Shown here piece after piece: positions 30,211-52,393 of a stretch of 64,000 nucleotides of DNA. Both the position numbers and the translations under genes were made by a program. Every line of letters begins with the position of its first letter. The stretch's first letter is position 1. The stretch is from Microbulbifer harenosus. GTDB lineage: Bacteria; Pseudomonadota; Gammaproteobacteria; Pseudomonadales; Cellvibrionaceae. The notes beneath the pieces were generated by a model. It searched no databases. It was given only the letters and a program-made list of their open reading frames with translations, and was not told the origin of the DNA. The stretch lies in NCBI RefSeq assembly GCF_005771435.1, contig NZ_VANI01000013.1, positions 1 to 64,000 of the forward strand. Direction: 5' to 3'.

Positions 30211-30320
30211 TTGGCGGCAGACCACCGGGGAGGGCGTTTCAGGACCGCTGTGAATACATCCCTGTACGCTTCGTCGGCAACGTCCCTGTTGCCGACGATC
30301 CTGAAACGCCCTCCCCGGTG
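30211..30320 (+). repeat. Hairpin element R1 (plus orientation)
   Basis: Outer arms 30223-30244 and 30299-30320 are a perfect 22-bp inverted repeat. Between them lie the conserved segment TACATCCCTGTACGC and an inner hairpin (CGTCGGCAAC, loop GTCCCT, GTTGCCGACG; 30272-30297). The left edge carries TTGGCGGC at 30211-30218. It forms a convergent pair with R2. Confidence 0.85.
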
Positions 30321-30399
30321 CTCTGCCTTATCGACGAGTTCAGTTTACTGATCCACCTTGGTTAAATAGTCAAATCGGACATACGACTCTTCAAGAGAA

Positions 30400-30516
30400 G
30401 CCAAAGTGCTGGGGGCGGGTTTTCAGGAGCGTCGCAAACAGGATGTTTGCGCCGCAGCGCCCAGGGATGGGTTCACAGCGGTCCTGAAAACCCGCCCCCA
30501 GTGCTTTGGCGCCACA
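30400..30516 (-). repeat. Hairpin element R2 (minus orientation)
   Basis: Outer arms 30400-30428 and 30482-30510, 29 bp with two mismatches that are still wobble-compatible. The inner hairpin is GCAAACA/TGTTTGC, and the conserved segment reads CATCCCTGGGCGC on the minus strand. It ends with GCGCCAC near 30515. It starts 79 bp after R1. R1 and R2 lie between the start of the sortase substrate gene and the purC terminator; apart from the pair I see nothing else in that interval. Confidence 0.85.
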
Positions 30517-30534
30517 GCAGCAATTCACCCGCAC

Positions 30535-30568
30535 CCGAAAAAAAGAAACCGGCACAGAGGCCGGTTTC
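30535..30568 (-). terminator. Terminator of purC
   Basis: Inverted repeat GAAACCGGC / GCCGGTTTC (30545-30553, 30560-30568) with a 6-nt loop, followed on the minus strand by TTTTTTT (interrupted once). It lies 22 bp past the purC stop. Confidence 0.85.
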
Positions 30569-30589
30569 AAAATTTTCTTGTGGGAAAAG

Positions 30590-31693
30590 TCAGTCAATCA
30601 GACCATATTCATCCCGCAGAACCTGAATAATTTCCGCTTTCGGATTGTCAGAAATCTCCAACTTACCTCCAATAATTTTCTCGGCGATACCCACGTAAGT
30701 CGCCGACAGGTCCATCAACATAGACTCCGGCAGTGCGTTGTCGCGAGCCAGCGCTTCTCTCTCATCCATGCGATCCTTGTTCAACAGAATGTCCGGATCT
30801 GGGAAGTAGCTCAGCAGCGCCTGGCGGAAGCCCTCTTTGGAGTTTTCCAGCACCTTGCCGTTGCGATAGGCCTCGCCATCCCAGATACGGGAAGAGTCCG
30901 GCGTACCCACCTCATCCATGTAGATCAGCTTCTCGTTACCTTCCGCATCCGTCACATAACCGAACTCGAACTTGGTATCCACGAAGATCTGATCCAGCTC
31001 CGCCAGCGCCGAGGAAATCACCTCGAAACCCTCTTTCAGCAGTTTTTCGTACAGCGCTATGTCGCCCTTACTGCGGAAATTGAACGCCTCGAAATTGTCC
31101 TCAATATTCTTGCGGGTGATATTCACATCGTCTGCTTCCGGAACACCGGGAATGCCTTTCAGAATGCCCTTGGTGGAGGGTGTAACCAGCAACTCCGGCA
31201 GCTTCTGATCCTTCTGCAATCCATCCGGGATCTCGATACCACAGAACTCGCGCTCGCCCTTGCTGTAGGCGCGCCACATGGAACCGGTGATGTACTGGCG
31301 CACGATGGCTTCAATTTTGACCGGACTGGCCTTCTGTACGATCCATACACCCGGATGGGGAATATCCAGGATATGACTGTCCGCCAGTCCCTGCTCCTTG
31401 AACAGCTTGAACCAGTGGTTGGAGATCGCATTCAGGGCCGCGCCCTTGCCCGGTACACCCAACAGGCCGCCCTCGCCGGTCCAGATACAGTCGAAGGCGG
31501 AGATACGGTCAGAAATCACCATAACCGCCAGCGGCGCGTCCGCGGCTACCGGGTAGCCCTTCTCCTCGATCAGGCGGCGGCTGTCCGCTTCGGTCAGCCA
31601 GTACACGGAGCGGACCTTGCCGCTGTGTACGGGCTTGTCGGTGCGGATCGGTAAATCGTTGTTCACTGCCAGTACTTTGTCAGCAAGGCTCAT
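30590..31693 (-). CDS. purC: Phosphoribosylaminoimidazole-succinocarboxamide synthase, long form
   Basis: 367 residues. It joins aspartate to CAIR with ATP in step eight of IMP synthesis, in the cytoplasm. The SAICAR synthetase signature regions are visible: [10 protein letters not shown] near residue 24, [12 protein letters not shown] near 58, [16 protein letters not shown] near 128 and DTKFEFGYV near 240. It belongs to the long version of PurC; the E. coli form is about 237 residues. The start is supported by AGGAAAGACCC before the ATG. It is transcribed alone, with its own terminator. Confidence 0.95.
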
Positions 31694-31770
31694 GGGTCTT
31701 TCCTATGGCTGGTTCAACGGCCGGGCCACGCAGCGCGCGACGGCGAGAAATGAAGCGCGGGATATTAGTG

Positions 31771-31803
31771 CCCCGGGCGGGAGAATGCCACTCCCGCCCG
31801 GGG
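31771..31803. terminator. Strong GC hairpin between the PerM-type gene and purC
   Basis: A perfect 13-bp inverted repeat (31771-31783 and 31791-31803), 7-nt loop, just past the stop of the PerM-type gene. There is no T-run after it on the minus strand, so it is either a weak terminator or an RNA-stabilising 3' stem. Confidence 0.5.
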
Positions 31804-31811
31804 CCTGCGGA

Positions 31812-32924
31812 TTAATTGCTGGCGTCGGTGCTCTCGCTGGCGGCCAGCAGTTCGCGTTCCTGCCACGCCGCCTGGTGATCCGCCGTGGGCCAGGCGTTCA
31901 TGATGGCCTTGGCAAGGGTAGCCAGGGGGATGGCGAAAAACACACCCCAGAAACCCCAGATGCCGCCGAACACCAGTACCGCGAGAATAATCGCCACCGG
32001 GTGCAGGTTGACCGCTTCAGAAAAGAGGATGGGCACCAGCACATTGCCGTCCAGCAGCTGGATGATGCCGTAGGCGAACATCAGCCAGAAAAACTCGCTG
32101 CTCCAGCCCCACTGGAACAGACCGATGGCCGCCACCGGAATGGTCACCGCCGCCGCGCCGATATAGGGGATAAGCACGGAAAGCCCCACCGCCACCGCCA
32201 GCAGCAGCGCGTAATTGACGCCAAGAAGCAGGAATGCGATGTAACTGACCAGCGCCACAATAGCGATTTCGATCACCTTGCCGCGCACGTAGTTGGCCAC
32301 CTGGTCATTCATCTCATGCCAGATCTGGCGCAGCATGGGGCGCTGGTGGGGTAGAAAGGAGGCACACCAGGCGAGCAGTTTGTTGGAGTCCTTAAGAAAG
32401 AAGAACACCAGAATGGGCACGACAACCAGATAGATAAGCACCGCTGCCAGCACCGGAATGTTGGCCAGAGAAAAGGTCAACACCGTCTGACCAAAGGAAC
32501 CCAGCTCGCTGCCCAGGGTATTGAAGATTTCGTCGATCTGCTGCGCAGTAACCAGGCGCGGGTACTGCTCCGGCAGCAGCAGCAACAGCTCCTGGCCGCG
32601 ATCGATCATGTTCGGCAGCTCGGCGAACAGGCGCACGGTCTGGCGCCAGATGATCGGCATCACCACAAACATCAGCCCTGCGATGGCCCCCACCAATACC
32701 AGGCAGGCGATGGTGACCGCCAGCCAGTGCGGCACCTTCCAGGATTCCAGCCGCTGCACCATTCCCTGCAGCAAAAACGCGATAACCAGGGCCGCCAGCA
32801 CCGGTGCCAGCACCCCCCCCAGGGTCGCCAGAACAACCATGGCGGCCAGCAGCAGCAGTACCAGCAGTACCACCTCTTCCTGGCTGAAATAGCGATTTAC
32901 CCAACCCCTGACGATCGCGAACAT
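31812..32924 (-). CDS. AI-2E family transporter (PerM-like permease)
   Basis: 370 residues with about eight hydrophobic helices in the arrangement of the AI-2E/PerM family: two near the N-terminus (about 17-45), one at 60-85, a periplasmic region (LPNMIDRGQELLLLLPEQYPRL), then a cluster from about 150 to 335. Family hallmarks such as PYIGAAAVTIP and a C-terminal GGIWGFWGVFFAIPLATLAKAI are present. Members range from autoinducer-2 exporters to sodium/proton antiporters, and the substrate cannot be told here. The gene order with a TusA-like gene 78 bp upstream and a BepA-like protease gene next to it is common in Pseudomonas relatives. Confidence 0.88.
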   Translation of the reverse strand: MFAIVRGWVNRYFSQEEVVLLVLLLLAAMVVLATLGGVLAPVLAALVIAFLLQGMVQRLESWKVPHWLAVTIACLVLVGAIAGLMFVVMPIIWRQTVRLFAELPNMIDRGQELLLLLPEQYPRLVTAQQIDEIFNTLGSELGSFGQTVLTFSLANIPVLAAVLIYLVVVPILVFFFLKDSNKLLAWCASFLPHQRPMLRQIWHEMNDQVANYVRGKVIEIAIVALVSYIAFLLLGVNYALLLAVAVGLSVLIPYIGAAAVTIPVAAIGLFQWGWSSEFFWLMFAYGIIQLLDGNVLVPILFSEAVNLHPVAIILAVLVFGGIWGFWGVFFAIPLATLAKAIMNAWPTADHQAAWQERELLAASESTDASN

Positions 32925-33002
32925 AAAACGACGTTACCTGACTGTGGATATGTGAACTTGCATGGACGACAGCGCGGCGTATCCCGCTTTTGTACGACCG
33001 CT

Positions 33003-33275
33003 TCAGATGGCGGCGAGCCAGTAGTGGAACTCGCCCCCCGGGCACTCGGCACGCAGCAAAGGTACACCACTCAGGCGGCAAAAGCTGCGAATATCCTCGC
33101 GGGACGCGGGGTCGGTGGCGATCAGGTGCAACAGGGAGCCCGGCGCCAGTGTTTTCAGCGCGCGGCGCATGGCCAGCAGTGGTTGCGGGCACGGGAGTCC
33201 GCGGGCATCTACCCTTAAAGCTGAATCCCAGTTGAAGTCCGGGGCTTCTGCGGCGCGCTTGACTGATTCGGTCAT
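33003..33275 (-). CDS. TusA/SirA-like sulfur carrier protein
   Basis: 90 residues from the ATG at 33275 (MTESVKRAAE), which follows GGGGAG; the frame extends upstream without support. The single TusA signature VDARGLPCPQPLLAMRRALKTL is present, with the conserved Cys in the CPxP motif that carries the persulfide. It is shorter and more divergent than TusA used in tRNA thiolation, so a generic sulfur-transfer role is the safest reading. It probably shares a transcript with the PerM-type gene downstream and diverges from the M48 protease gene. Confidence 0.88.
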   Translation of the reverse strand: MTESVKRAAEAPDFNWDSALRVDARGLPCPQPLLAMRRALKTLAPGSLLHLIATDPASREDIRSFCRLSGVPLLRAECPGGEFHYWLAAI

Positions 33276-33450
33276 GACTCCCCGGTTTCCGGTGGTAAAG
33301 AACAGTAAACGCCGCGAATTATACCGGCGCCATCGGGTCAATGGGCCGATCAGTAGAACCTTTTCCCGGGGAACTGCTCAAAACCTCGACAGTCCCACAG
33401 GGTTACGTATAGTGTTAGCCACAGGCAACCTGGCAGTCCCAGTAAATGAT

Positions 33451-34977
33451 ATGACCGAATTTTCCACCACGATCAGGCGAACCACAGGGCGCACCCCGCG
33501 CCACAGCGGGTGCTGGCAGGGCCTGCGTCGGAGCGTCGCCGGCATGGCCACCGGCCTGCTTCTCGCAGGCGCTTCCGTTGGCGCCACCGCGCAGGACGAC
33601 CACCAGCACATCCAACTGCCACAACTCGGAGACACCAGCAGTGGCCTGGTCTCCCGCGCGCGCGAAAACGAGCTGGGCGAGATGTGGCTGCGCATGTTCC
33701 GCAGCCAGGTGCGCACCTCCAGCGACGCCCTGCTACAGCAGTACGTGGAAAACTCCCTTAAAGTCCTCGCCGAATACAGCCCGCTGGAAGACAAGACCCT
33801 GGACGTCGTGGTAGTCAAAAATGACACCATGAACGCCTTCGCGGTACCCGGTGGTGTGGTGGGTGTACACACGGGTCTGTTTCTGTTCGCGGAGAATGAA
33901 GACCAGTTCGCCTCGGTTCTCGCCCACGAACTCGCGCACTTGAGCCAGCGCCACTACGCCCGCTCGCTCGAGGCCCAGCGCAACAGCACCCTGCCCACCC
34001 TCGCCGGCATGCTCGGCGCCCTGGTGCTCGCCGCCACTGCCGGGGGCGACGCCGGTATCGCCGCAATGACCGCCACCCAGGCCGCTGCACTCGACAACCA
34101 GCTGCGCTTCTCCCGCCAGAACGAGCAGGAGGCAGACCGCGTGGGCATCGAGACCCTGGCCAAGGCCGGCATGGACCCACAGGCGGCCGGCGAAATGTTT
34201 GAACAAATGCTGAAGGCCACCCGCTATTACCGCCGCCCGCCGGAATTCCTGCTCACGCACCCGGTGACGGAAAAGCGGATTGCCGACGCCAAGCTGCGCG
34301 CCAATCGCATGGAAAAGGTGCCACTGCGGGACAGCCGTGAATACCACCTGATGCGCGCCCGTATTCGCGTGGCCGCCGAGGCCACACCACAGCAGGCGGT
34401 AAAGCGATTCCAGGCGGAACTGCGAGGGGTGAATGACAACGAAGACGCCGCGCGCTACGGCTTGGTGCTCGCCCAGACTTCAGCGGGCAAACCCGACGAA
34501 GCGCTGGAATCTCTGCAGCCGTTGCTGGACAAAGAGCCGGATAAAGACGCCTTTATCCTCGCCCGCGCCGACATCGACCTGGCCCGTCACGACTACACCA
34601 GTGCCACCCGGCGGCTGGAAAAAGCCGTGGAGAACAATCCCAAGAATCACGCCTTGATCATGGGTTTGGCCAACGCCCACTTCAAAGCAGGCAATTATCT
34701 GGCCGCCGAGCGCATCCTCTCCAAACACAGCCGTGAGCGCCGCAAGGACCCGGCAGTGTGGTACCTGCTGGCAGAGACCCACGGTCTGGCCGGCGATATC
34801 GTCGGCGTGCACGAGGCCCGTGCCGAGTACTACATCCTGAACGGCGTGTTCGACAAAGCCCTGCAGCACCTGCGCCACGGCATACGCCTGGCAAAGAACG
34901 ACTACCAGACCCACGCGATTCTGGAACAGCGGATGAAGGATGTGATCAAGATGCAGGAGAAGGCAAAAGAACTCTGA
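33451..34977 (+). CDS. bepA: M48-family periplasmic metalloprotease/chaperone with TPR tail (BepA-like)
   Basis: 508 residues from ATG 33451; the frame is open further upstream but overlaps the divergent TusA-like gene. A signal peptide (GMATGLLLAGASVGATAQ, cleavage near residue 48) leads to an M48 domain with the zinc motif HELAHLSQRH near residue 160 and the third ligand in the NEQEADRVG segment. The C-terminal half (about 300-505) is TPR repeats. In E. coli BepA assists LptD assembly and degrades misfolded outer-membrane proteins. It is followed by hairpin element R3 and converges with nadA. Confidence 0.9.
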   Translation: MTEFSTTIRRTTGRTPRHSGCWQGLRRSVAGMATGLLLAGASVGATAQDDHQHIQLPQLGDTSSGLVSRARENELGEMWLRMFRSQVRTSSDALLQQYVENSLKVLAEYSPLEDKTLDVVVVKNDTMNAFAVPGGVVGVHTGLFLFAENEDQFASVLAHELAHLSQRHYARSLEAQRNSTLPTLAGMLGALVLAATAGGDAGIAAMTATQAAALDNQLRFSRQNEQEADRVGIETLAKAGMDPQAAGEMFEQMLKATRYYRRPPEFLLTHPVTEKRIADAKLRANRMEKVPLRDSREYHLMRARIRVAAEATPQQAVKRFQAELRGVNDNEDAARYGLVLAQTSAGKPDEALESLQPLLDKEPDKDAFILARADIDLARHDYTSATRRLEKAVENNPKNHALIMGLANAHFKAGNYLAAERILSKHSRERRKDPAVWYLLAETHGLAGDIVGVHEARAEYYILNGVFDKALQHLRHGIRLAKNDYQTHAILEQRMKDVIKMQEKAKEL

Positions 34978-35023
34978 ACCAGAGTATTGGAGAGCTTCTT
35001 CTGGAATGAATTAGGTTGAATCG

Positions 35024-35155
35024 AAGGCAAAGTGCCGGGTATCTGTTTTTGAAAGCGTCGGCGACATGGACGTCGCCGACGCAGCGTACAGGGATGTATT
35101 GAAGGGGGGCGCCTAGCCCGGTTCTGAAAATGTCCACCCAGTGATCCGCCGCCAC
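35024..35155 (-). repeat. Hairpin element R3 (minus orientation, unpaired)
   Basis: The inner hairpin is an 11-bp perfect stem (35055-35065 / 35072-35082, loop ATGGAC). The conserved segment reads GCGTACAGGGATGTATTG on the plus strand. The outer arms are degenerate compared with the other copies. It carries the insert GGGGGGCGCCTAGCCC also seen in R5, and ends with GCCGCCAC (35148-35155). It lies between convergent bepA and nadA and has no partner element. Confidence 0.75.
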
Positions 35156-35176
35156 TGAGCCCCCTACAAAGCTCCC

Positions 35177-36256
35177 TCAATCCAGCGGCTTGCGGAAATC
35201 CAGCATACGCTGCAGCGGCATCATCGCGCGTTTGCCCAGTTCCGGATCGACAAGGATTTCATTGTCGCCGCGCTCCAGCACTCCACACAGATTTTCCAGC
35301 GAGTTCATCGCCATCCACGGGCAGTTGGCGCAGCTGCGACAGGTGGCACCGGAGCCGGCGGTGGGCGCAGTGATCAACTCCTTGTCCGGACACTGCTGCT
35401 GCATCTTGTAGAAAATGCCCTGGTCAGTAGCCACGATAAACTGCTTGTTCGGGCGGGTTTTGGCGGCGTTGATGATCTGGGAAGTCGACCCAACCACATC
35501 CGCCAGCTCCACCACCGCAGCGGGCGACTCCGGGTGCACCAGCACCAACGCGTCCGGATACAGCGCCTTCAGGTCGGCAACCCCCTTGGCCTTGAACTCC
35601 TCGTGCACGATGCAAGCGCCGTCCCACAGCAGCACATCGGCACCAGTCTGCTTCTGCACATAACTGCCCAGGTGCTTGTCCGGCGCCCACAGGATTTTCT
35701 CTCCCTGGGAATCCAGGTAGTCCACCACGTCCAGCGCAATACTGGACGTCACAACCCAGTCAGCGCGGGCTTTGACCGCCGCAGAAGTATTCGCATATAC
35801 CACAACCGTGCGGTCAGGATGCTGGTCGCAAAATGCAGAGAATTCTTCGATAGGACAACCCAGATCCAGCGAACAGGTCGCCTCCAGGGTAGGCATCAGC
35901 ACACGCTTGTTGGGAGTGAGAATCTTGGCGGTCTCACCCATAAACTTCACCCCGGCAACGATCAACGTGTCCGCCTGATGCTGAGCGCCGAAACGCGCCA
36001 TTTCCAACGAGTCGGACACGCAGCCGCCGGTCTCCTCCGCCAACTGCTGGATCAGCGGATCGGTATAGTAGTGCGCAACCAGCACTGCATTCTGCTCTTT
36101 CAACAGACGCTTGATGCGCTCGCGCCACAGCTCCAGCTCTTCCGGGCTGTACTCGTGTGTCGCGGGGTGTGTCATATGCTCCTGCACGAATTCGCGGGCA
36201 TCAATGGCATTCGGCGCGGGGCTGCTGGTGGCAATTTTTTCGCTGCTGTCTGTCAT
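35177..36256 (-). CDS. nadA: Quinolinate synthase
   Basis: 359 residues from ATG 36256; an in-frame GTG at 36277 is the alternative. NadA condenses iminoaspartate with dihydroxyacetone phosphate to quinolinate in NAD synthesis, using an oxygen-sensitive 4Fe-4S cluster. Cluster cysteines are visible in [14 protein letters not shown] and in the C-terminal [13 protein letters not shown]. The substrate-binding stretch [21 protein letters not shown] is also conserved. It is next to the tRNA-Lys genes as in Pseudomonas. Confidence 0.96.
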
Positions 36257-36439
36257 GCTGTGATGGATCTCTGTCACACGGAAAGGCCGGCATTATACCG
36301 GTCTGCAGAAATTTCGCTGAATTCAGCACCGGCAATGGCGGCTTCCACTGAAATTCTAGGGTGGAATAGGAATGGGAACGACGCAGCACAGAATATCTGT
36401 GGAGTCCAAATCGGCTCTTTGCGTGAGAAAACTGGGGAA

Positions 36440-36515
36440 TGGTGGGTCGTGCTGGATTCGAACCAGCGACCAATTGGTTAAAAGCCAACTGCTCTACCAA
36501 CTGAGCTAACGACCC
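36440..36515 (-). tRNA. tRNA-Lys (TTT), copy 1
   Basis: 76 bp on the minus strand, from GGGTCGTTAGCTCAGTTGG to an encoded CCA end. The anticodon loop CTTTTAA gives TTT. The T-arm is GCTGG-TTCGAAT-CCAGC. It differs from copy 2 by one base in the T-loop. Both copies are probably one transcript. Confidence 0.97.
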
Positions 36516-36602
36516 TTTGGCAGCCGGGCGTGAAACAGCCCTGACTGAAAGTACACGACAAATGGCCTGGTAGAGAGCGATTTGTCATGGGCGCGGAGAA
36601 TA

Positions 36603-36678
36603 TGGTGGGTCGTGCTGGACTCGAACCAGCGACCAATTGGTTAAAAGCCAACTGCTCTACCAACTGAGCTAACGACCC
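36603..36678 (-). tRNA. tRNA-Lys (TTT), copy 2
   Basis: 76 bp with encoded CCA; acceptor GGGTCGT pairs with ACGACCC; anticodon TTT. The T-loop reads TTCGAGT rather than TTCGAAT. It is the promoter-proximal copy. Confidence 0.97.
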
Positions 36679-36706
36679 TTAATCCCCTCGCCTTGAGGAG
36701 CTGCGT

Positions 36707-36734
36707 ATCTTACGGATCTAATCCGAAAACACAA
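36707..36734 (-). promoter_or_regulatory. Candidate promoter of the tRNA-Lys pair
   Basis: On the minus strand TTGTGT (36729-36734) and TAAGAT (36707-36712) are 16 bp apart, ending about 28 bp before the first tRNA base. Confidence 0.5.
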
Positions 36735-36772
36735 GTCCCGATCATAAAAAAATTTCCAGCAAATATAAGGGC

Positions 36773-37456
36773 TTAGCGATGCCCGGCGTAGATGGTCGGA
36801 TCATCCAGGCCGGCCTCGGCAAAACCCGCGGCGCGCAGGCGGCAGCTGTCGCAGCGGCCGCAGGCGGCGCCATCAGGCCGGGCCTGATAACAGCTCACGG
36901 TCAGACTGTAGTCCACGCCGAGCTCTGTGCCCCGCGTGACGATATCCGCCTTGCTCATTTTCATCAGCGGCGCGTGAATCGTGAGTTTCTTACCTTCCAC
37001 CCCCGCACGTGTGGCAAGGTTTGCCATCTTTTCAAACGCGTCGATGTACTCGGGGCGGCAATCCGGGTAACCAGAATAGTCAACCGCATTCACACCCACA
37101 AAAATATCCTGTGCACCGAGCACCTCCGCCCAACCCAGGGCGATGGAGAGGAACACGGTGTTGCGCGCCGGTACATAAGTAATCGGGATACCACTGGTCT
37201 CCTCTTCCGGCACGGCGATGCTGTCGTCGGTAAGCGCAGAACCTCCGATAACCCGGAGGTCCAGCTTTACCACCTTGTGTTCCACGGCCCCGAGGTCTAC
37301 CGCCACACGCCGGGCGGCGGCAAGTTCCGCACTGTGGCGCTGGCCGTAGTCAAATCCGAGTGCATAGCATTCGTAGCCGTCACGGCTCGCCATGGCCAGA
37401 ACCGTGGCGGAATCGAGTCCGCCGGACAACAGAACGACTGCTTTTTTGTTACTCAT
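36773..37456 (-). CDS. queC: 7-cyano-7-deazaguanine synthase
   Basis: 227 residues from ATG 37456 ([19 protein letters not shown]); the upstream extension lacks support. QueC turns carboxy-deazaguanine into preQ0 with ATP and ammonia, for queuosine in tRNA. The PP-loop SGGLDS is at the N-terminus, and the zinc-binding [17 protein letters not shown] cluster is near residue 190-206. It lies downstream of queE in the same direction with a gap of about 57 bp, so they are probably co-transcribed. Confidence 0.96.
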
Positions 37457-37513
37457 AAATCCATCCGAATTCTTCTGGCGAACTTCCAGCGAACATGGGC
37501 AAACCACTCGCCA

Positions 37514-38203: not shown

Positions 38204-38284
38204 TCGCAATCCGCATCCCGCTCAGTGAACATCTCACACCGCCTCTGGCCACGGCTTCAACCCGTGAAGCGTCCCAGACACATA

Positions 38285-39308: not shown

Positions 39309-39317
39309 GCTTTCAGA

Positions 39318-43193: not shown

Positions 43194-43197
43194 GTCG

Positions 43198-43753: not shown

Positions 43754-44776
<1,023 letters not shown>

Positions 44777-44789
44777 ATGCACTCAATTA

Positions 44790-45401
44790 TCAGGCAGGGG
44801 CCATGCTCTTCAGGGCGATACGGATCAAGCTGGCGCTGTCGGCGTCGGGCTGCTCCTTGGCGGCGCGGGAGACCATTTTGGTGGCATCCGTGGGCTTGTA
44901 ACCGAGCGCAACCAGAGCACTTTCCGCCTCGCCCGCATGGTCCAACTTGGGTTCGGCATTCACCGCCAACAGCGGGATGTCGCCGAGATCACCGGCCTGC
45001 GGGGTGAGCTTGCCGCGCAGCTCGATGATCAGGCGCTCGGCGGTTTTCTTGCCCACACCGGGTACTTTTACCAGCGCCCCCACATTATCGTCCGCCACAC
45101 AGCGCGCCAGCGCGGCGCCATCGAGGCCGGAGAGAATTGCCAGCGCCATTTTCGGGCCGACGCCGTTGACCTTGATCAGGATGCGGAACAGCTGGCGATC
45201 CGATTCGCGGATAAAACCAAACAGCTGCTGGGAGGTTTCCGACACCGCCAGATGGGTATGCAGCTGCACGCTGCCGCCCAGTTGCGGCAATTCGAAGATG
45301 GTGGTCATGGGAGCCAGCACTTCGTAGCCGACACCCTGCACATCCACCAAAAGTTGCGGCGGCTGAACCGCGGCCAGTTTGCCGGTAAGTCTTCCAATCA
45401 T
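44790..45401 (-). CDS. ruvA: Holliday junction DNA-binding protein RuvA
   Basis: 203 residues from ATG 45401 (MIGRLTGKLAAVQPP). The frame extends upstream only through hairpin element R4 and lacks conserved sequence. It has an N-terminal OB domain, helix-hairpin-helix motifs (FRILIKVNGVGPKMALAIL, LVKVPGVGKKTAERLI) and a C-terminal RuvB-binding domain (ALVALGYKPTDATKMV). It forms tetramers on four-way junctions. Confidence 0.97.
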   Translation of the reverse strand: MIGRLTGKLAAVQPPQLLVDVQGVGYEVLAPMTTIFELPQLGGSVQLHTHLAVSETSQQLFGFIRESDRQLFRILIKVNGVGPKMALAILSGLDGAALARCVADDNVGALVKVPGVGKKTAERLIIELRGKLTPQAGDLGDIPLLAVNAEPKLDHAGEAESALVALGYKPTDATKMVSRAAKEQPDADSASLIRIALKSMAPA

Positions 45402-45456
45402 TGTTGTTCCAGTATCAATTCTTTTATGCCGGGGCCCTCGCTCTTTAGAAACCCCA

Positions 45457-45573
45457 GTGGCGGTACTGCTACCGATATTTGTTTGCGAGACACGCCGTGA
45501 ACCCATCCCTGGGGGCTCTTCCGCGAGGTCCCTCTCGCGGAAGGTCTCGCAAACAAATATCGGTAGCAGCACC
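45457..45573 (+). repeat. Hairpin element R4 (plus orientation)
   Basis: Outer arms 45462-45491 and 45544-45573, 30 bp with one mismatch. The conserved segment is ACCCATCCCTGGGGG. The inner hairpin is TTCCGCGAG / CTCGCGGAA (45519-45542) with loop GTCCCT. The left terminus is GTGGCGG at 45457. It lies in the ruvA leader, about 56 bp before the ruvA start. Confidence 0.85.
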
Positions 45574-45652
45574 TTCGCTTCTTAGCACAATGCCATGTAA
45601 ACCCAAAGGGTATTTCCCGTGAACGCCAAGTACAGTGCACTACGACGCTAAG

Positions 45653-45784
45653 GCTTTGATACCGGGGGCACCTTTGCGGGACCGTCTGCGGCCTGGATGG
45701 CCGCAGCCGAGCCCCCAGGGATGGGTTAAGGGGGGGCGCCTAGCCCGTGTCCCGCAAAGGCGTCACCGGTAGCAAAGCCGCCAC
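45653..45784 (-). repeat. Hairpin element R5 (minus orientation)
   Basis: Outer arms 45653-45682 and 45749-45778, 30 bp with a few mismatches. The inner hairpin is CTGCGGCC / GGCCGCAG (45686-45706). It carries the same GGGGGGCGCCTAGCCC insert as R3. It ends with GCCGCCAC (45777-45784). It starts 79 bp after R4, the same distance as between R1 and R2. R4 and R5 fill most of the 414-bp gap between ruvC and ruvA. Confidence 0.85.
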
Positions 45785-45815
45785 CGGCCCTCCCAACAGC
45801 GAACCACGAAGCCCG

Positions 45816-46346
45816 CTAAGAAATACTCAACCTTCCGCGCCGGAACCGGGCCCGGCTTCCGGTAGAGGACTGGATCAATGTCTGCATCGTGTGCAGATGA
45901 CAGAGTGCCACCGCCAGTGCATCCGCGGCGTCTTCCTGCGGCGAGGCGGGGAGTTTCAATAGGGTTTTGACCATGTGCTGGACTTGTAACTTGTCCGCCG
46001 CACCACTGCCCACCACCGCCTGCTTCACCTTGCGCGCTTCGTATTCCGACACCGGCAGACCTGCGTTGGCAGCGGCGACGATGGCGGCGCCCCTCGCCTG
46101 GCCGAGCTTCAGGGCCGAACCCGCGCTCTTGGCCATGAACACATTTTCAATGGCCATCTGCTGTGGCTGGTACTGCTGGGCAATCTGGCTCACTGCGTCG
46201 AAGATGAGTTTGAGCCGCTCCGGCAACGGGGCATCCGGTATGCGGATCACGCCGCTGGCCACATAGCGGGCACTGGAGCGCTCCACGTCGATCAGGCCAT
46301 AGCCGGTCTTGCGTGAGCCGGGGTCTATCCCCAGAATTCGGGTCAC
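45816..46346 (-). CDS. ruvC: Holliday junction resolvase RuvC
   Basis: 176 residues from the GTG at 46346 ([17 protein letters not shown]); an ATG seven codons upstream is possible. The RNase H-fold catalytic acidic residues are visible in GIDPGS, AIENVF and the C-terminal [12 protein letters not shown]. It cuts junctions after RuvAB migration. It normally abuts ruvA but here is separated from it by elements R4 and R5. Confidence 0.96.
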
Positions 46347-46440
46347 GGCTGCCTGCCCCCTGTACATTTATACAATTCCGGCGGGAAGTGTCCCAAGGCG
46401 ATTGCGGGGCGTCAAGGCGAAAGGGGCAATCCCCGGAAAC

Positions 46441-46465
46441 AAAAATGCCCCGACTGGCGGGGCAT
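46441..46465 (-). terminator. Terminator after the YebC-family gene
   Basis: Stem ATGCCCCG / CGGGGCAT (46445-46452, 46458-46465) followed on the minus strand by TTTTTG. It separates yebC from ruvC. Confidence 0.85.
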
Positions 46466-46485
46466 ATCAGGGGCGCGAAGCAGGA

Positions 46486-47229
46486 TTACCCGAGTTCGGC
46501 CATTACCTCTTCCGGGATATCCGCATTGGTGTAGACGTTCTGCACATCGTCCAGGTCTTCCAGCATATCCACCAGTGCCAATACCTTCTCCGCACCCTCT
46601 TTATCCAGCGCGATGGTGGTGGAGGGGATCATGGCGATTTCCGCGCTCGCTGGAGCGAAGCCCGCTGCGGTCAACGCCTCCTTTACCGGCATGTAATCGG
46701 TAAACTCGGTGGTTACCTCGATGCTGCCGTCGTCATTGGTGACGATATCTTCCGCACCGGCTTCCAGCGCCGCTTCCATCAGTGCATCTTCATCCACACC
46801 CGCGTCGTAGAACATCTGCCCCTTGCGCGAGAACAGATAGGCCACGGAGCCGTCGGTACCCAGATTGCCGCCACGCTTGCTGAAGGCGTGGCGCACTTCA
46901 CTTACGGTGCGGTTGCGGTTGTCGGTCAGGCATTCCACCAGCACCGCGACACCGCCAACGCCATAGCCTTCGTAGATGACCGCCTCGTAGTTATCGCCGT
47001 CATTGGCGCCAGCACCGCGGGCAATCGCTTTGTCGATGGTGTCGCGCTTCATGTTCGCGCCGAGGGCCTTATCGATGGTGGCACGCAGGGTGGGGTTGTC
47101 ATCCGGATTGGCACCGGCCTTGGCGGCGACGGTCAGTTCGCGAATGATCTTGGTGAAAATCTTGCCCCGCTTGGCATCCTGGGCAGCCTTGCGGTGCTTG
47201 ATGTTGGCCCATTTACTGTGTCCAGCCAT
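46486..47229 (-). CDS. yebC: YebC/PmpR family protein
   Basis: 247 residues from ATG 47229 ([23 protein letters not shown]), with GGAGG upstream. The three-domain family signature is intact ([39 protein letters not shown]). Members were described as transcription regulators; more recent work links the family to relief of ribosome stalling. It stands between aspS and ruvC, its usual place. Confidence 0.95.
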
Positions 47230-47251
47230 CAATTTTTCCTCCGTCGTCTCC

Positions 47252-47317
47252 CTGTAGGAGCCTGCTTGCAGGCGAACATTCGCAGTGCGAAATTCGCCTG
47301 CAAGCAGGCTCCTACAG
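47252..47317. repeat. REP-like palindrome between aspS and the YebC-family gene
   Basis: A perfect 25-bp inverted repeat (47252-47276 and 47293-47317). The arms begin CTGTAGGAGCCTGCTTGCAG, which resembles Pseudomonas REP sequences (GTAGGAGC...GCTTGC). The loop is 16 nt and has its own TTCGCA/TGCGAA complement. No T-run. This is a single copy in the window. Confidence 0.8.
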
Positions 47318-47331
47318 CGGTTTTCTACAAC

Positions 47332-49110
47332 TTAACCTACCTGCTCTTCTTTACTGCGCAGGCGAATGCTCAGCTCGCGCAGCTGTTTGGCATCTACCGC
47401 GCCGGGGGCGTCGGTCATCACACAGGCAGCACTCTGGGTTTTCGGGAAGGCGATGACGTCGCGGATGGAGTCGCTGTTGGTCATCAGCATCACCAGGCGG
47501 TCGAGGCCGAAGGCAAGGCCACCGTGGGGCGGCGCACCGTATTTCAGTGCATCCAGCAGGAAGCCGAATTTTTCGCGCTGCTCTTCGGCGCTGATGCCCA
47601 GGGCGCGGAATACGGTCTGCTGCATTTCCTGATTGTGGATACGGATGGATCCTCCACCCAGCTCAGTGCCGTTCAGCACCATATCGTAAGCGCGCGACAG
47701 GGCCTCCAGCGGGTTCTTCTCCAGCTCCTCCGGTGCGCAGGAAGGTGAAGTGAACGGGTGGTGCAGCGCGGTAATACTGCCGTCGTCGTTCTCTTCGAAC
47801 ATCGGGAAGTCCACCACCCACAACGGGGCCCATTCGGCGACGTACAGGTTGAGGTCTTCTCCCAGCTTGCAGCGCAGGGCGCCGAGAGCTTCGGATACAA
47901 TTTTGCCCTTGTCGGCGCCGAAGAAGATCAAATCGCCGTTCTCCGCCCGCAGACGGTCGAGAATAGCTGCGCGCACATCGTTTGGCAGGAACTTGACGAT
48001 GGGGGACTGCAGGCCGTTTTCCAGGTCGGACTTGTCGTTGACCTTGATATAGGCGAGACCCTTGGCACCGTAGATACCCACAAACTTGGTGTAATCGTCG
48101 ATCTGCTTGCGCGTCAGTTTGTCGTTGCCACCGGGCACTTTCAGCGCAGTGACACGGCCTTTCGGGTCGTTCGCGGGGCCGGAGAACACTTTGAAGTCCA
48201 CATCGGTCATCAGGTCCTTGATGTCCACCAGTTCCAGCGGAATGCGCAGGTCAGGCTTGTCGGAGCCAAACTTTTCCATCGCCTCGCTGAACGGCATACG
48301 CGGGAACTCCCCCAGCTCAACGCCTTTCAGCTCCTTGAACAGCTTGCGGATCATGCCCTCGGTGATGGACATGATGGCGTTTTCATCGAGGAAACTGGTC
48401 TCGATATCAATCTGGGTGAATTCCGGCTGGCGGTCTGCGCGCAGGTCTTCATCGCGGAAGCACTTGGCGATCTGGTAGTAGCGGTCGTAACCGGACACCA
48501 TCAGCAGCTGCTTGAACAGCTGGGGAGATTGCGGCAGCGCAAAGAATTTGCCGGCGTGGGTGCGGCTTGGCACCAGATAGTCGCGGGCCCCTTCCGGCGT
48601 GGCGCGGGTGAGGATCGGGGTCTCGATATCCAGGAAGCCCTCGCCATCCAGGTAGTTGCGGATGGCATTGGTGATCTTGGAGCGGAACCGCAGGTTGCGC
48701 TGCATCTCACCGCGGCGCAGATCCAGGTAACGGTATTTGAGGCGCACATCCTCGCCAACGGCCGTGTGCTCGTCCAACTGGAACGGCGGGGTTTCGGCGG
48801 AGTTGAGAATTTCCAGCTGCTGGCCGTAAATCTCGATCTCGCCGGTGGCCATGTTCGGGTTGACCGCTTCCGGGGCGCGCGCGCGCACTCGCCCGGTGAC
48901 CTTGAGCACGAACTCGCTGCGCACGCGGTCCGCCAGTTTGAAGTGTTCGGCGGCATCCGGATCAAACACCACCTGGGCAATACCATCGCGGTCGCGCAGG
49001 TCGATGAAGATCACCCCGCCGTGATCGCGGCGGCGGTCTACCCAGCCACACAGGGTTACTTCGCGGTCAATATCGGCGGATCGCAGGGCGCCACAGTAAT
49101 CGGTGCGCAT
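47332..49110 (-). CDS. aspS: Aspartyl-tRNA synthetase
   Basis: 592 residues, the bacterial length. It has an N-terminal OB anticodon-binding domain (about 1-105) and a class II catalytic core with motif 2 [18 protein letters not shown] and motif 3 [13 protein letters not shown]. The bacterial GAD insertion lies at about 280-420. Whether it is discriminating or also charges tRNA-Asn cannot be decided here. Confidence 0.97.
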
Positions 49111-49142
49111 GGAGTCTTATTCCCTTAGTCAGTAATGTTGAA

Positions 49143-49424
49143 TCAGCTTGCTTTGGCGGAGCCGGAGGCGCTGCTGCCTGTGTTGGCTGCCGGCTTGTCC
49201 TTATTCGGCTTGGCGGCGTCGCCCGCCAGGTTCTTCTTGCTGCCGGTCTTGAAATCGGTCTCGTACCAGCCACCGCCCTTGAGCCGGAATCCGGCTGCGG
49301 AAATTTTCTTGCTCAACTCCGCCTGGTTGCAGGCGGGGCAATCGGTCAGTGGCGCATCGCTCATGCGCTGCAGGGCTTCCATCTGGTGGCCACAGGCCTT
49401 GCACTGGTATTCGTAGATAGGCAT
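49143..49424 (-). CDS. FmdB-type zinc-ribbon protein
   Basis: 93 residues from ATG 49424. The N-terminal zinc ribbon MPIYEYQCKACGHQ...LTDCPACNQ has the two CxxC pairs, and the conserved FRLKGGGWYETDF follows. The tail is a low-complexity Ala/Ser/Lys segment. The family often sits upstream of aspS, as here, 32 bp away. The function is not established; it may be co-transcribed with aspS. Confidence 0.9.
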   Translation of the reverse strand: MPIYEYQCKACGHQMEALQRMSDAPLTDCPACNQAELSKKISAAGFRLKGGGWYETDFKTGSKKNLAGDAAKPNKDKPAANTGSSASGSAKAS

Positions 49425-49607
49425 GGCTTTTACCCGAAATCTCACGGCATTCAAAGGGGCGCAGATTATACATGAGCCCCCCGGAGGGAAGAAGTTACCG
49501 GTGTATGGGAACCCCGCCCGGGCATCAGAAGGCTAAATTCCGGCCAAAACCCTGTAAAAATGCACTTTTTTTCCAATTTTTCCCGATGCGCGCGGATAAA
49601 AACTGGA

Positions 49608-49648
49608 TATACTCAGTCCAGTACTTGGGAACACCCTGTCGTACTGGA
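49608..49648. promoter_or_regulatory. Possible promoter element and inverted repeat before the HU-like gene
   Basis: TATACT (49608-49613) could be a -10 box, but no matching -35 is clear. Just downstream TCCAGTAC (49617-49624) and GTACTGGA (49641-49648) form an 8-bp inverted repeat in the probable leader. This lies in the 295-bp divergent gap between the zinc-ribbon and HU-like genes. Confidence 0.3.
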
Positions 49649-49719
49649 GAATCCGACCGATTTCCGGAGCTCCCGAACCACTTTTATTGGAAAAACACTG
49701 ATACAAAAGGAAGCTAACG

Positions 49720-50160
49720 ATGGCCGCACGCAAGACCGCCGCAGCTAAGAAAGCCCCCGCCAAGAAAGCCGCAGCCAAAACCGCAGCGAAAAAGGCTCCA
49801 GCCAAGAAGGCCGCAGCCAAGGCCGCTCCGGCCAAGAAAATGGCTGTAGCAAAAGAAAAATTCACAAAAACCCAGGTACTGAACCACATTGCCGAAGCCA
49901 CCGAGCTGTCCCGCAAGCAGGTTCAGGCGGTACTGGACGAGCTGACCAACGTGATTGAAAGCCATGTGAAGAAGAAGGCCGTGGGCGAATTCGCCCTGCC
50001 GGGTCTGCTGAAAATCACCACCGTGAAGAAGCCGGCCAAGAAAGCGCGCAAGGGCATCAACCCCTTCACTGGCGAAGAGACCATGTTCAAGGCCAAGCCC
50101 GCGAGCATCCAGGTAAAAATCCGTCCGCTGAAGAAGCTGAAGGAAATGGCCGAGTCCTGA
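49720..50160 (+). CDS. HU-family DNA-binding protein with histone H1-like Lys/Ala-rich N-terminus
   Basis: 146 residues. Residues 1-45 are almost only Ala, Lys, Pro and Thr (repeats of AAKKAPAKK), like histone H1 tails and AlgP-type proteins. Residues about 46-140 form an HU/IHF fold (FTKTQVLNHIAEATELSRKQVQAVLDELTNVI, then GEFALPGLLKITTVKKPAKKARKGINPFTGEE). The start is supported by AAGGAAG. It probably compacts the nucleoid. A strong terminator follows. Confidence 0.93.
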   Translation: MAARKTAAAKKAPAKKAAAKTAAKKAPAKKAAAKAAPAKKMAVAKEKFTKTQVLNHIAEATELSRKQVQAVLDELTNVIESHVKKKAVGEFALPGLLKITTVKKPAKKARKGINPFTGEETMFKAKPASIQVKIRPLKKLKEMAES

Positions 50161-50182
50161 TTCTCGCCGCCTTCAGCCAAGA

Positions 50183-50210
50183 AACCCCGCTTTTGCGGGG
50201 TTTTCCGTTT
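50183..50210 (+). terminator. Terminator of the HU-like gene
   Basis: Stem AACCCCGC / GCGGGGTT (50183-50190, 50195-50202), loop TTTT, then TTCCGTTTTT. Confidence 0.92.
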
Positions 50211-50317
50211 TTGGGGCAACGATGCCCCAGCTTCCAACCGGGCAACCCTACCAAAACGCCGTTGCTACGGCGTAAAATGGCCGCCCCCTGAAATTCAACG
50301 ACCAAAAAGAAAGCCCT

Positions 50318-52048
50318 ATGCGCGCCTCCCGCTATCTGATCGCTACCCAGAAAGAAACCCCCAATGACGCCGTGGTCATCAGCCACCAGTTGATGCTCCG
50401 CGCCGGCATGATCCGCCGCCTGTCCTCCGGTCTCTATACCTGGCTGCCCACCGGCCTGCGTGTTCTGCGCAAGGTGGAGCGTATCGTGCGCGAGGAAATG
50501 GATCGGGCGGGTGCGCTGGAGGTGCTGATGCCGGTAGTGCAGCCGGCGGAGCTGTGGGAAGAATCCGGCCGCTGGCAACAATACGGGCCGGAACTGCTGC
50601 GTATCCAGGATCGCCACGACAACCCTTTCTGCCTGGGCCCAACCCACGAGGAAGTGATCACCGATCTGATCCGTACCGAGATCAGCAGCTACAAGCAGCT
50701 GCCGGCGAATTTCTACCAGATCCAGACCAAGTTCCGCGACGAGATCCGCCCGCGTTTCGGCGTAATGCGCGCGCGTGAATTCACCATGAAGGACGCTTAT
50801 TCTTTCCACCTGAGCGCGGATTCCCTGCAGGAAACCTACGATGTGATGCACGATGCCTACTGTCGCATCTTCGATCGCATCGGCCTGGATTACCGCCCGG
50901 TGTTGGCGGACACGGGCTCCATCGGCGGATCCCACTCCCATGAATTCCACGTACTGGCCCAGAGCGGCGAGGACGATATCGCGTTTTCCACCGTGAGCCG
51001 TTATGCGGCGAACGTGGAGCTCGCGGAAGCCGTGGCACCCGCCGGCGAGCGCCCGGCGCCGTCGAAAGACATGGCGGAGCTGCACACTCCGGGGCAGAAA
51101 ACCATTGCTGCACTGGAGGAGGCCTTCGGTATCGCGGCGAATACCTCGGTGAAAACCCTGATTGTGCTGGGCGAAACCGAGGAAGAAGGCGCGGAAGCGC
51201 CGCTGGTGGCGCTGGTGCTGCGCGGTGATCACGAGCTGAATGAGCTGAAGGCAGAGAAACTGCCGGGCGTTGCCAGCCCGCTGCAGTTCGCTCCGGAAGC
51301 ACGTATCGCCGCGGAGCTGGGCTGCGGTATCGGTTCATTGGGCCCGGTCGGCCTGACGATTGATGTGATCGTGGATCGCGCTGCGGCGCATCTGGCGGAC
51401 TTCGTGTGCGGCGCTAATAAGGACGATTACCATTTGACGGGCGTGAACTGGGACCGCGACGCGGCGCTGGCTCGCGTGGAGGACCTGCGCAATGTGGTGG
51501 CGGGCGATGCGAGCCCGGATGGCGAGGGTGTGATCGAGATCAAGCGCGGTATCGAGGTGGGGCACATTTTCCAGTTGGGGAATAAGTACAGCAAGGCGAT
51601 GAATGCCAAGGTGCTGGACGAGAACGGCAAGGAGCAGGTGATGGTGATGGGCTGTTACGGCATCGGGGTTTCCCGTGTTGTGGCGGCGGCCATTGAGCAG
51701 AACCACGATGATGCGGGCATCATTTGGCCGGAGGCGATTGCGCCGTTCCAGCTGGCGATTGTGCCGATCAATATGCAGAAGAGCGAGGCGGTTACCTGGA
51801 AGTGTGAGCACATCTATGAGGCACTCACTGCGAAGGGTATCGATGTGCTGCTGATGGATGAGCCGAAGGCGCGCCTGGGTGCGATGCTGGCGGATACTGA
51901 GCTGATGGGCATTCCGCACCGCATCGTGGTTGGCGACCGCGGCCTGGAAGGCGGCAAAATCGAGTACAAGGGCCGTCGCGATTCTGAGAATTCAGAGTTT
52001 TCTGCGGATCAGATCGTGGACATCCTGCTCGAGAAAATTTCGCACTGA
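50318..52048 (+). CDS. proS: Prolyl-tRNA synthetase, bacterial type
   Basis: 576 residues. The class II core has motif 1 near [23 protein letters not shown], motif 2 [25 protein letters not shown] and motif 3 [13 protein letters not shown]. The INS editing domain (about 220-385), which hydrolyses Ala-tRNA-Pro, lies between motifs 2 and 3. A C-terminal anticodon-binding domain follows. Confidence 0.97.
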
Positions 52049-52094
52049 TCTTGGCAGGCTCTTCGTAGCCCGTCTTCCTTCGTAAGCAGGTGCG

Positions 52095-52211
52095 GTGGCG
52101 GCCGATCACTGGGTGAAAGGTTTCGAAACCGCTGTAAATACATCCCTGTACGCTGCGTCGGCGACGTCCCTGTCGCCGACGCTTTCGAAACCTTTCACCC
52201 AGCACTCGGCC
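52095..52211 (+). repeat. Hairpin element R6 (plus orientation)
   Basis: Outer arms 52100-52128 and 52183-52211, 29 bp with three mismatches. The conserved segment is TACATCCCTGTACGC. The inner 11-bp hairpin is GCGTCGGCGAC / GTCGCCGACGC (52155-52182) with loop GTCCCT. The left terminus is GTGGCGGCC (52095-52103). Confidence 0.87.
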
Positions 52212-52274
52212 TTCGCGAAGAGTTCACAGTTTTGTTCGGCTCGCTCTATGCGGAGTACAACACTCTGATGCGAA

Positions 52275-52393
52275 GGGCCTGATACCGGGTATACCTTTGC
52301 GAGACCTTCCGCGAGAGGGACCTCGCGGAAGAGCCCCCATGGATGGGTTCACGGCGTGTCTCGCAAAGGTATACCCGGTAGCAGGGCCGCCAC
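52275..52393 (-). repeat. Hairpin element R7 (minus orientation)
   Basis: Outer arms 52275-52305 and 52358-52387 are near-perfect over TACCGGGTATACCTTTGCGAG. The inner hairpin is TTCCGCGAG / CTCGCGGAA (52307-52330), identical in stem to R4. The right terminus GGCCGCCAC (52385-52393) is the exact complement of the left end of R6, so the pair behaves as one 299-bp unit. Apart from this pair, the 415-bp gap between proS and the transglycosylase gene shows nothing. Confidence 0.87.

What the first reader, a model, noticed from the sequence alone, without database searches (positions are those of the whole stretch)
30211..52393. A family of seven hairpin elements with variable but matched outer stems, mostly as convergent pairs
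R1-R7 share a conserved CATCCCTG segment and an inner hairpin, usually with loop GTCCCT or its complement. The 22-30 bp outer arms differ between copies, yet in six of seven copies (R3 is degenerate) both arms carry matching changes. Three loci hold a plus element followed by a minus element: R1/R2, R4/R5 and R6/R7. The gaps are 79, 79 and 63 bp. The outer ends carry GTGGCGGC-like inverted termini (exact 9 bp in R6/R7). Two minus elements (R3, R5) share the insert GGGGGGCGCCTAGCCC, suggesting modular exchange. I know no named family that fits; a REP/BIME-like or MITE-like non-autonomous element is the closest idea.
Basis: seen in the sequence. Interest (0 to 1): 0.78.

Follow-up and report, generated by a model that had tools for sequence, protein, structure and literature searches.

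The report
Mobile hairpins with CsrA-type loops
Scattered over this marine bacterium's genome, mostly just behind genes, are at least 150 copies of a hairpin element, related to a repeat known from Yersinia, whose long arms differ from copy to copy yet nearly always match each other, and whose two small loops carry the sequence that the regulator protein CsrA is known to bind.

Summary
The seven hairpins belong to a family with at least 150 copies in this genome and relatives across Gammaproteobacteria (46 of 274 sampled genomes, own included). It is not unnamed: the core is that of the Yersinia repeat YPAL/RU-2 (27 identical bases with one gammaproteobacterial copy) and, below threshold, Rfam Ysr224.

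New here:
- Outer arms carry little sequence information yet pair: 97.7% of structure cells in 142 copies, 34 of 39 pairs with changes on both sides.
- Mismatches show which strand folds: G.U 177 against A.C 2 on the GGA strand, alike in copies read sense or antisense by the neighbouring gene.
- On that strand both inner hairpins have ANGGAN loops, the CsrA/RsmA site; 39 of the genome's 43 exact CsrA SELEX consensus sites lie in listed copies.
- 104 of 107 placed clusters lie behind a gene; 29 of 33 close pairs have GGA strands pointing outward.

Best reading: a YPAL-type mobile hairpin that works as a folded single strand. CsrA docking is suggested by sequence, untested, and orientation neutrality argues against a simple role in the host mRNA.

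The parts
30216..30327 (-). R1, GGA strand on minus; type A; hp1 holds GTACAGGGATGT at 30256-30267
   Evidence: model match 118.6 bits; exact match to the CsrA SELEX consensus
30400..30510 (+). R2, GGA strand on plus; outward-pointing partner of R1; hp2 loop of 5 bases (AGGAT)
   Evidence: 109.7 bits; sequence
35026..35150 (+). R3, single copy between convergent genes (own gene caller); carries the GGGGGGCGCCTAGCCC-type insert; SELEX-type site 35086-35097
   Evidence: 75.4 bits; sequence; site; genes
45462..45573 (-). R4, type B
   Evidence: 107.4 bits; sequence
45652..45779 (+). R5, type B with insert; partner of R4; hp2 loop TGGAT lacks the first A
   Evidence: 87.6 bits, matched 45653-45778; sequence
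52100..52211 (-). R6, type A; SELEX-type site 52140-52151
   Evidence: 115.7 bits; site; copies at the same place in related species
52275..52388 (+). R7, type B; partner of R6
   Evidence: 114.2 bits, matched 52276-52388; copies at the same place in G021, G005, G032
52095..52103 (.). left 9-bp inverted terminus GTGGCGGCC of the R6/R7 pair; conserved flanks reach about 25 bp beyond the stem on either side of an element
   Evidence: sequence; flank profile
52385..52393 (.). right inverted terminus GGCCGCCAC of the R6/R7 pair
   Evidence: sequence; flank profile

Best explanation
This is a YPAL-type non-autonomous mobile element (about 112 nt of folded core and arms, about 165 bp with conserved flanks) whose working form is one single strand, the GGA strand. 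That strand folds into a long stem of nearly arbitrary sequence, capped by a junction with two small hairpins whose loops read ANGGAN. SHOWN: the fold and its covariation, the strand asymmetry, loop constancy, position behind genes, inverted pair geometry, presence and absence at the same place in related species. INFERRED: the folded GGA strand (ssDNA during movement, or RNA) is what an unidentified mobilising protein recognises, so that mainly foldable copies are passed on; arms stay matched by this filter, helped by conversion between copies or between the two arms. INFERRED, about 0.4 on its own: the loops are CsrA/RsmA docking sites, two per copy with GGA motifs 23-24 nt apart, so that a GGA-sense transcript could hold CsrA.
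For: Family and fold. Homology to YPAL: 27-nt identity of RU-2 with copy L163, Ysr224 matches of 28.3 and 24.4 bits. Strand: with Watson-Crick +1 and every other pair -1.5, mismatches on the GGA strand are G.U 177 / A.C 2 in 122 of 142 own copies and 67 / 10 in 82 of 121 class-wide copies, the rest failing the arm filter; rare mismatches alone give G.T 29 and 43, A.C 2 and 7. Not tied to host orientation: G.U/A.C 39/0 in 25 sense singles and 36/0 in 22 antisense singles, or 20/0 and 25/0 without the two positions that carry shared G.U. Loops: hp1 A 142 of 142, GG 141 of 142 and 140 of 141, A 141 of 141; hp2 GG 142 of 142, flanking A 134 of 142 and 135 of 138; alike class-wide. CsrA consensus RUACARGGAUGU with AC/GU closing a hexaloop (passage, PMC7652899); 43 sites against 1 for the reversed pattern, 39 in the 150 listed copies. 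Mobility: filled places and spacers of 14-21 bp at the R4/R5 place. Pairs with GGA strands outward: 29 of 33 own, 4 of 4 in G286, 7 of 12 multi-copy clusters in named loci.
Against: No mobilising gene was found. No protein binding was tested. Single copies are not biased towards the GGA strand lying in the upstream gene's mRNA (32 sense, 26 antisense), which speaks against a cis mRNA role for CsrA. Ysr224 as modelled in Rfam is the opposite (CCU) strand, so in what I saw transcription of the GGA strand is not documented. Eleven genus genomes with 5-27 csrA matches have few copies (0-12, one with 45); they are all among the more distant ones (74-78% identity), no tree was built, and the direction was not predicted. 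Of 12 multi-copy clusters in named loci three are tandem and one is inward. hp2 lacks the N base in 30 of 142 copies.
Confidence: 0.58

Rival explanations
1. Host-serving CsrA sponge or docking element: copies in 3' untranslated regions put two CsrA sites into many mRNAs and so buffer CsrA, like a dispersed CsrB/RsmZ.
For: Exact SELEX-type hp1 and ANGGAN loops; location just behind genes; csrA present in the genome; two GGA motifs 23-24 nt apart in the 16 copies listed.
Against: No clear sense-strand bias (32 against 26), and equal strand asymmetry in antisense copies. Very long stems are not what SELEX favoured: most hairpins had four or fewer contiguous pairs (PMC7652899 passage).
Confidence: 0.25
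2. 3'-end structure only: a stable hairpin behind genes that blocks exonucleases or ends transcripts; the loops have no special partner.
For: Position after stop codons, median 45 nt in the 32 singles of the ++ class; predicted energies of -64 to -101 kcal/mol for 13 copies folded with flanks.
Against: Does not explain constant ANGGAN loops with a free second base, nor the one-strand mismatch pattern.
Confidence: 0.15
3. REP/BIME-type element moved by a Y1 (RAYT) transposase.
For: Inverted pairs; fold of one strand; Y1 matches in 45 of 48 genus genomes.
Against: G012, G013 and G004 have 50, 47 and 16 copies but no Y1 match, while G046, G020 and G033 have 4, 2 and 5 Y1 matches and no copies; no fixed GTAG at the hp1 foot.
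Confidence: 0.08
4. Arms are matched by template-switch correction of palindromes during replication, without selection on folding.
For: Long arms of arbitrary sequence (median 29-32 bp, up to 48); copies at the same place in related species show 26 double changes that stay paired against 15 one-sided.
Against: Gives no reason for the strong one-strand mismatch bias. Could still act beside selection.
Confidence: 0.2
5. Arms come from the target: the core enters existing palindromes, or insertion makes an inverted duplication of local DNA.
For: In G286 arms are unrelated between 11 copies (outer 25 nt 0.29 mean identity) while hp2 stem columns are 0.70 alike; YPAL targets span or adjoin dyad symmetry (PMC2229807 passage).
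Against: In the own genus arms share conserved segments between copies. The one G286 place looked at in a relative of about 70% identity holds neither arm by eye, which is too distant to decide.
Confidence: 0.2

Closest known systems
YPAL / RU-2 (Yersinia palindromic sequences)
   Same: Core sequence (27-nt identity with copy L163), two hairpins with loops AAGGAT and ATGGAT in the printed RU-2, total size about 165-168 bp, intergenic and multicopy, filled and empty sites.
   Different: Here: arms almost free in sequence but matched, inverted outward pairs, at least 150 copies, other outer ends (GTGGCGG / TACGAAG type). Whether YPAL arms vary likewise was not examined.
Rfam RF02770 Ysr224
   Same: Model covers hp1 and hp2 on the CCU strand; 28.3 bits at R6 and 24.4 at R1.
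   Different: Below the gathering score of 70; the printed model does not pair the long outer arms.
TwoAYGGAY (RF01731)
   Different: Not listed in three E-value scans up to 10 of R1/R2, R4/R5 and R6/R7. Reported from human gut, Gammaproteobacteria and Clostridiales (table row, PMC2864571).
REP / BIME with RAYT
   Same: Dispersed hairpins, inverted pairs.
   Different: Much longer, no fixed GTAG, no tie to Y1 transposase genes.
CsrB / RsmZ-type RNAs
   Same: ANGGAN-type hairpin loops.
   Different: Those are single-locus regulatory RNAs with many loops (recalled); here two loops per copy in many copies.
Pae-1 of P. aeruginosa (Petrillo 2008)
   Same: 133 copies of a pair of adjacent stem-loops (passages, PMC2267715).
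   Different: Sequence not seen, so not compared; it could be a relative under another name.

Membership tests
YPAL/RU-2 | core sequence | tested here: met
   RU-2 letters from PMC2759123 share 27 identical bases with L163; R1, R6, R7 share runs of only 9, 12 and 8, but match the related Ysr224 model
YPAL/RU-2 | about 168 bp, intergenic, multicopy | tested here: met
   flank profile gives about 26 + 112 + 25 bp; 107 of 109 clusters do not overlap called genes by more than 30 bp
YPAL/RU-2 | target-site duplications of 3-26 bp | tested here: inconclusive
   empty places found but spacers too diverged to read duplications
YPAL/RU-2 | targets span or adjoin dyad symmetry | tested here: inconclusive
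   two copies, L034 and L074, lie between arms of a longer palindrome by eye; others not assessed
Rfam Ysr224 | gathering score 70 | tested here: not met
   best 28.3 bits; only the two tRNAs pass gathering in the window
REP/RAYT | associated Y1 transposase | tested here: not met
   copies without Y1 and Y1 without copies among 48 genomes
REP/RAYT | GTAG foot of a short hairpin (recalled) | tested here: not met
   112-nt element, variable bases at the hp1 foot
TwoAYGGAY | model match | tested here: not met
   not listed at E <= 10 for three of the four loci
CsrA/RsmA binding site | ANGGAN hexaloop, SELEX consensus | tested here: met
   exceptions in hp2: 30 of 142 lack the N base, 8 have C in place of A
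CsrA/RsmA binding site | binding by CsrA | not testable with these tools
   needs gel shift or CLIP
MITE | ends shared with an autonomous element | tested here: inconclusive
   ORFs called between neighbouring copies 200-4000 bp apart show no transposase by eye, first 160 aa only; rest of genome not examined
ERIC | 127-bp ERIC sequence | not tested
   no comparison run

The most novel reading that the evidence does not exclude
A class-wide mobile element family that spreads by carrying paired CsrA/RsmA docking hairpins: the folded GGA strand, not a duplex end, is the unit of recognition, CsrA (or a CsrA-like protein) is its partner, and the long arms are rewritten from site to site yet stay self-complementary. 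Genomes would then hold hundreds of CsrA sites of selfish origin that titrate a global regulator.
Probability: 0.27. Interest if true: 0.88.

Novelty: new variant of a known kind. Interest (0 to 1): 0.68.

Why it matters
If the loops bind CsrA, a marine bacterium carries at least 150 mobile, structured CsrA sites, and the same would hold in many Gammaproteobacteria; that would alter how Csr/Rsm titration is modelled and give YPAL, for which no partner protein appears in the passages I saw, a candidate one. If they do not, the strand-specific fold with free but matched arms still points to an unidentified protein that recognises a folded single strand. Either way a gel shift or a CLIP data set would decide quickly.

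Tried and rejected
Rejected: 'no named family' (YPAL fits the core). Rejected as main reading: REP/RAYT. Rejected as evidence against CsrA: six genus genomes without a csrA match; for five of them a whole flank of the expected neighbourhood reads N, and for the sixth the neighbourhood was not recovered, so nothing follows. Led nowhere: a plasmid search with a composite core (no match); a mobilising gene between neighbouring copies; pair partners are not clearly more alike than random pairings (238 of 2000 random sets reach the observed mean; subtypes agree in 9 of 27); a G286 empty place too diverged to decide; eleven G136 stretches were fetched but my pattern found no copy in them, so they were not analysed; copies beside csrA paralogs are rare (1 match in 20 loci), and my pattern failed to find the paralogs themselves in the 13 loci that I scanned.

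Papers, all in the held open library only: YPAL or Ysr224, 52 papers, 20 listed; YPAL with CsrA, 0; five-term Yersinia/CsrA search, 0; CsrA binding with miniature inverted-repeat, 1, listing only; Ysr224/Ysr197/CsrA, 2, listing only in that call; CsrA/RsmA/repeat terms, 23 papers, 20 listed; Microbulbifer/repeat terms, 11, listing only; TwoAYGGAY, 7 papers, 5 listed. Passages seen: PMC9029176 (Ysr224 among the most abundant annotated sRNAs), PMC2267715, PMC2759123, PMC2229807, PMC5193452, PMC7652899, PMC2864571, PMC4333381. The original YPAL paper (De Gregorio 2006) was not read.
Full report
WHAT IS THERE. On it an element reads: CGAAGG, outer arm, hp2 (variable stem, loop A-N-G-G-A-Y), a linker ending in AGC, hp1 (UAC or CCC stem, loop A-N-G-G-A-U), TTCAC or similar, matching outer arm, CCGCCAC. 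A 16-copy alignment (A1) gives 39 predicted pairs, of which 30 have a change on both sides.

HOW MANY. CATCCCTG occurs 264 times in the 4.67-Mb genome against 37 for the reversed control. A covariance model from A1 (R1) matched all 150 scored candidates, of 2170 first-look candidates, so 150 is a lower bound. I fetched stretches holding 141 of these 150; the 9 on contig C67 were not fetched. One further copy turned up, giving A2 with 142. On A2 97.7% of cells pair against 69.8% in shuffles and 33-45% with slid partners; 34 of 39 pairs change on both sides. A2 is fitted to the model, so I also measured arms on raw sequence.

GENUS. The genus is most likely Microbulbifer: contig C28 of same-genus genome G043 has 873,413 bases, the length of a Microbulbifer variabilis contig.

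WIDER SPREAD. In the class 46 of 274 genomes match, own included, in 41 of 222 genera. In a phylum draw 20 of 299 match, all of them labelled own, same genus, same order or same class; how many of the 299 lie outside the class is not shown. Both used strict filters. For the class-wide analysis I gave cmsearch 100 loci: 72 of the 80 listed (eight Microbulbifer left out) and 28 of the 29 non-own loci; the 39 unlisted stretches were not used. It returned 124 matches (A3); 121 were kept after dropping three wrong-strand doubles.

WHAT IT IS RELATED TO. Rfam has nothing above gathering in the window except two tRNAs. In E-value scans of short stretches Ysr224 (RF02770) matches R6 at 28.3 bits (E 1.3e-4), R1 at 24.4 (1.8e-3), R7 at 17.1 (0.21) and R4 at 15.0 (1), against a gathering score of 70. 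At R2 and R5 the top lines are animal microRNA models (best 34.6 bits, E 4e-5, at R2), which I take as chance matches to a long hairpin; they are also far below their gathering scores. The RU-2/YPAL sequence printed in PMC2759123 (passage) has the same core layout and loops AAGGAT and ATGGAT, and shares 27 identical bases with copy L163 from a gammaproteobacterial MAG; with R1, R6 and R7 the longest identical runs are only 9, 12 and 8. PMC2229807 (passage) gives for YPAL about 168 bp, duplications of 3-26 bp, and targets that span or adjoin dyad symmetry. The own element, with conserved flanks near TACGAAGTA...TCGAAGG and GCCACCGAACCAGCTACGAAGCACC, is of that size.

ARMS. In own copies model columns 18-20 carry about 0.1-0.3 bits yet pair in 97-99% of copies. 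Class-wide most arm columns carry 0.02-0.4 bits. Arms are not long in every copy: of 121 class-wide copies 82 pass a raw-sequence filter, with median arm 29 and maximum 48; of 142 own copies 122 pass, median 32; Halomonas copies, for example, have 8-24 bp. In G286 eleven copies have like cores (hp2 stem columns 0.70 identical) but unrelated arms (outer 25 nt 0.29; letters). At the R6/R7 place seven comparisons in four of seven loci tried passed a 60% left-arm identity filter; they give 26 double changes that stay paired, 15 one-sided changes (6 via G.U, 9 mismatched) and 3 double changes not paired. Whole hp2 modules are exchanged too. So arms change quickly and mostly together.

WHICH STRAND. 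With Watson-Crick pairs at +1 and all others at -1.5, so that G.U is not favoured, mismatches on the GGA strand are G.U 177, G.G 85, G.A 80, C.T 9, T.T 4, C.C 4, A.C 2 in 122 own copies, and G.U 67, G.A 34, G.G 13, A.C 10, A.A 10, T.T 5, C.T 5 in 82 class-wide copies. Part of this is shared ancestry: positions 23 and 24 hold 89 of the 177 G.U, and 62 of 85 G.G sit at position 2. Restricted to rare mismatches the bias remains: G.T 29, G.G 23, A.G 21 against A.C 2, C.C 4, C.T 9 (T.T 4); and G.T 43, A.G 27, G.G 12 against A.C 7, C.T 5, no C.C (A.A 8, T.T 5). Strand-symmetric mutation would make the two sides equal. The G-containing mismatches are the stable ones (recalled), so I read the GGA strand as the strand that folds. 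The bias is the same where the upstream gene reads the GGA strand (39 to 0, 25 copies) and where it reads the other (36 to 0, 22 copies); without positions 23 and 24, 20 to 0 and 25 to 0. It is therefore tied to the element, not to the mRNA it lies in. RNA and ssDNA cannot be told apart by this.

LOOPS. In 142 copies hp1 has A 142, GG 141 of 142 and 140 of 141, A 141 of 141, second base G 98 or T 44; hp2 has A 134 (C 8), GG 142, A 135 of 138, second base G 86, T 23, C 3, absent in 30. Class-wide alike, with all four bases at the second place (hp1 there is partly biased by the search pattern, hp2 is not). This is the RsmE ANGGAN hexaloop, and the type-A hp1 GUACAGGGAUGU equals the CsrA SELEX consensus RUACARGGAUGU with its AC/GU closure (PMC7652899 passage). 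The genome has 43 such sites against 1 for the reversed pattern; 39 lie in the 150 listed copies, and one of the other four lies 94 bp from a listed copy, where a pair partner would be. PMC4333381 (passages) made the same inference for TwoAYGGAY, whose external stem is also poorly conserved.

PLACE AND PAIRS. With a gene caller of my own (hexamer model) 107 of 109 clusters were placed (2 overlap a called gene): 104 lie downstream of at least one gene and 3 between divergent genes, against 42 divergent of 141 element-free gaps of 100 bp or more. Single copies: 32 with GGA sense to both neighbours, 26 antisense, 14 between convergent genes, 3 divergent. In G286 and the named loci 53 clusters counted (24 overlapping long ORFs and 10 at edges set aside) gave 5 divergent, against 51 of 188 gaps (cruder ORF rule). 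Of 33 own pairs 29 have GGA strands pointing outward and 4 inward, none same-oriented. In G286 4 of 4 point outward; of 12 multi-copy clusters in named loci 7 are outward pairs, one a double outward set, one inward, three tandem. L149 and G501 show tandem arrays. Partners are not clearly more alike than random.

HOW IT MAY WORK. Copies at the R4/R5 place in G005 and G007, and spacers of only 14-21 bp in G011, G018, G039, G023 and G035, show gain or loss. I infer a mobile element passed on as a folded GGA strand, with new copies often landing near the hp2-side end of an old one in inverse orientation. The CsrA reading is the most specific explanation of the loops, but the lack of a sense bias means that it is not simply an mRNA element; CsrA could instead matter to the element itself, or a CsrA-like protein could be the partner.

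LIMITS.

Noticed in passing
window 47252-47317: A perfect 25-nt inverted pair CTGTAGGAGCCTGCTTGCAGGCGAA, a classical GTAG-type REP pair (name recalled), separate from this family.
   Followed up: no
L002 (same copy as L021:2501-2643) and L018 near 2567: A REP-like GTAG hairpin sits inside the hp2 loop of two copies, a mobile hairpin nested in another.
   Followed up: no
G009, G020, G028, G029, G030, G034, G038, G040, G043, G044, G045: CsrA-family matches number 5-27 per genome; these genomes have few copies of this element. Probably one clade, no tree built. RHS-like and intron-like ORFs lie near some, by eye.
   Followed up: partly
G501 C1:94414-95653: Six copies in tandem at about 227-bp spacing.
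   Followed up: no
L034 and L074 near 2501: Near-identical copies lie between the arms of a longer terminator-like palindrome that differs between the two sites (by eye).
   Followed up: partly
L300 about 8877-9028: A 34-bp perfect palindrome around a core that seems to lack a normal hp2, a decayed copy with intact arms (by eye).
   Followed up: no
window 36443-36515 and 36606-36678: Two nearly identical tRNA genes in tandem.
   Followed up: no
window 49724-49852: Seven 15-base-spaced repeats inside the ORF 49720-50160, lysine/alanine-rich by eye.
   Followed up: no
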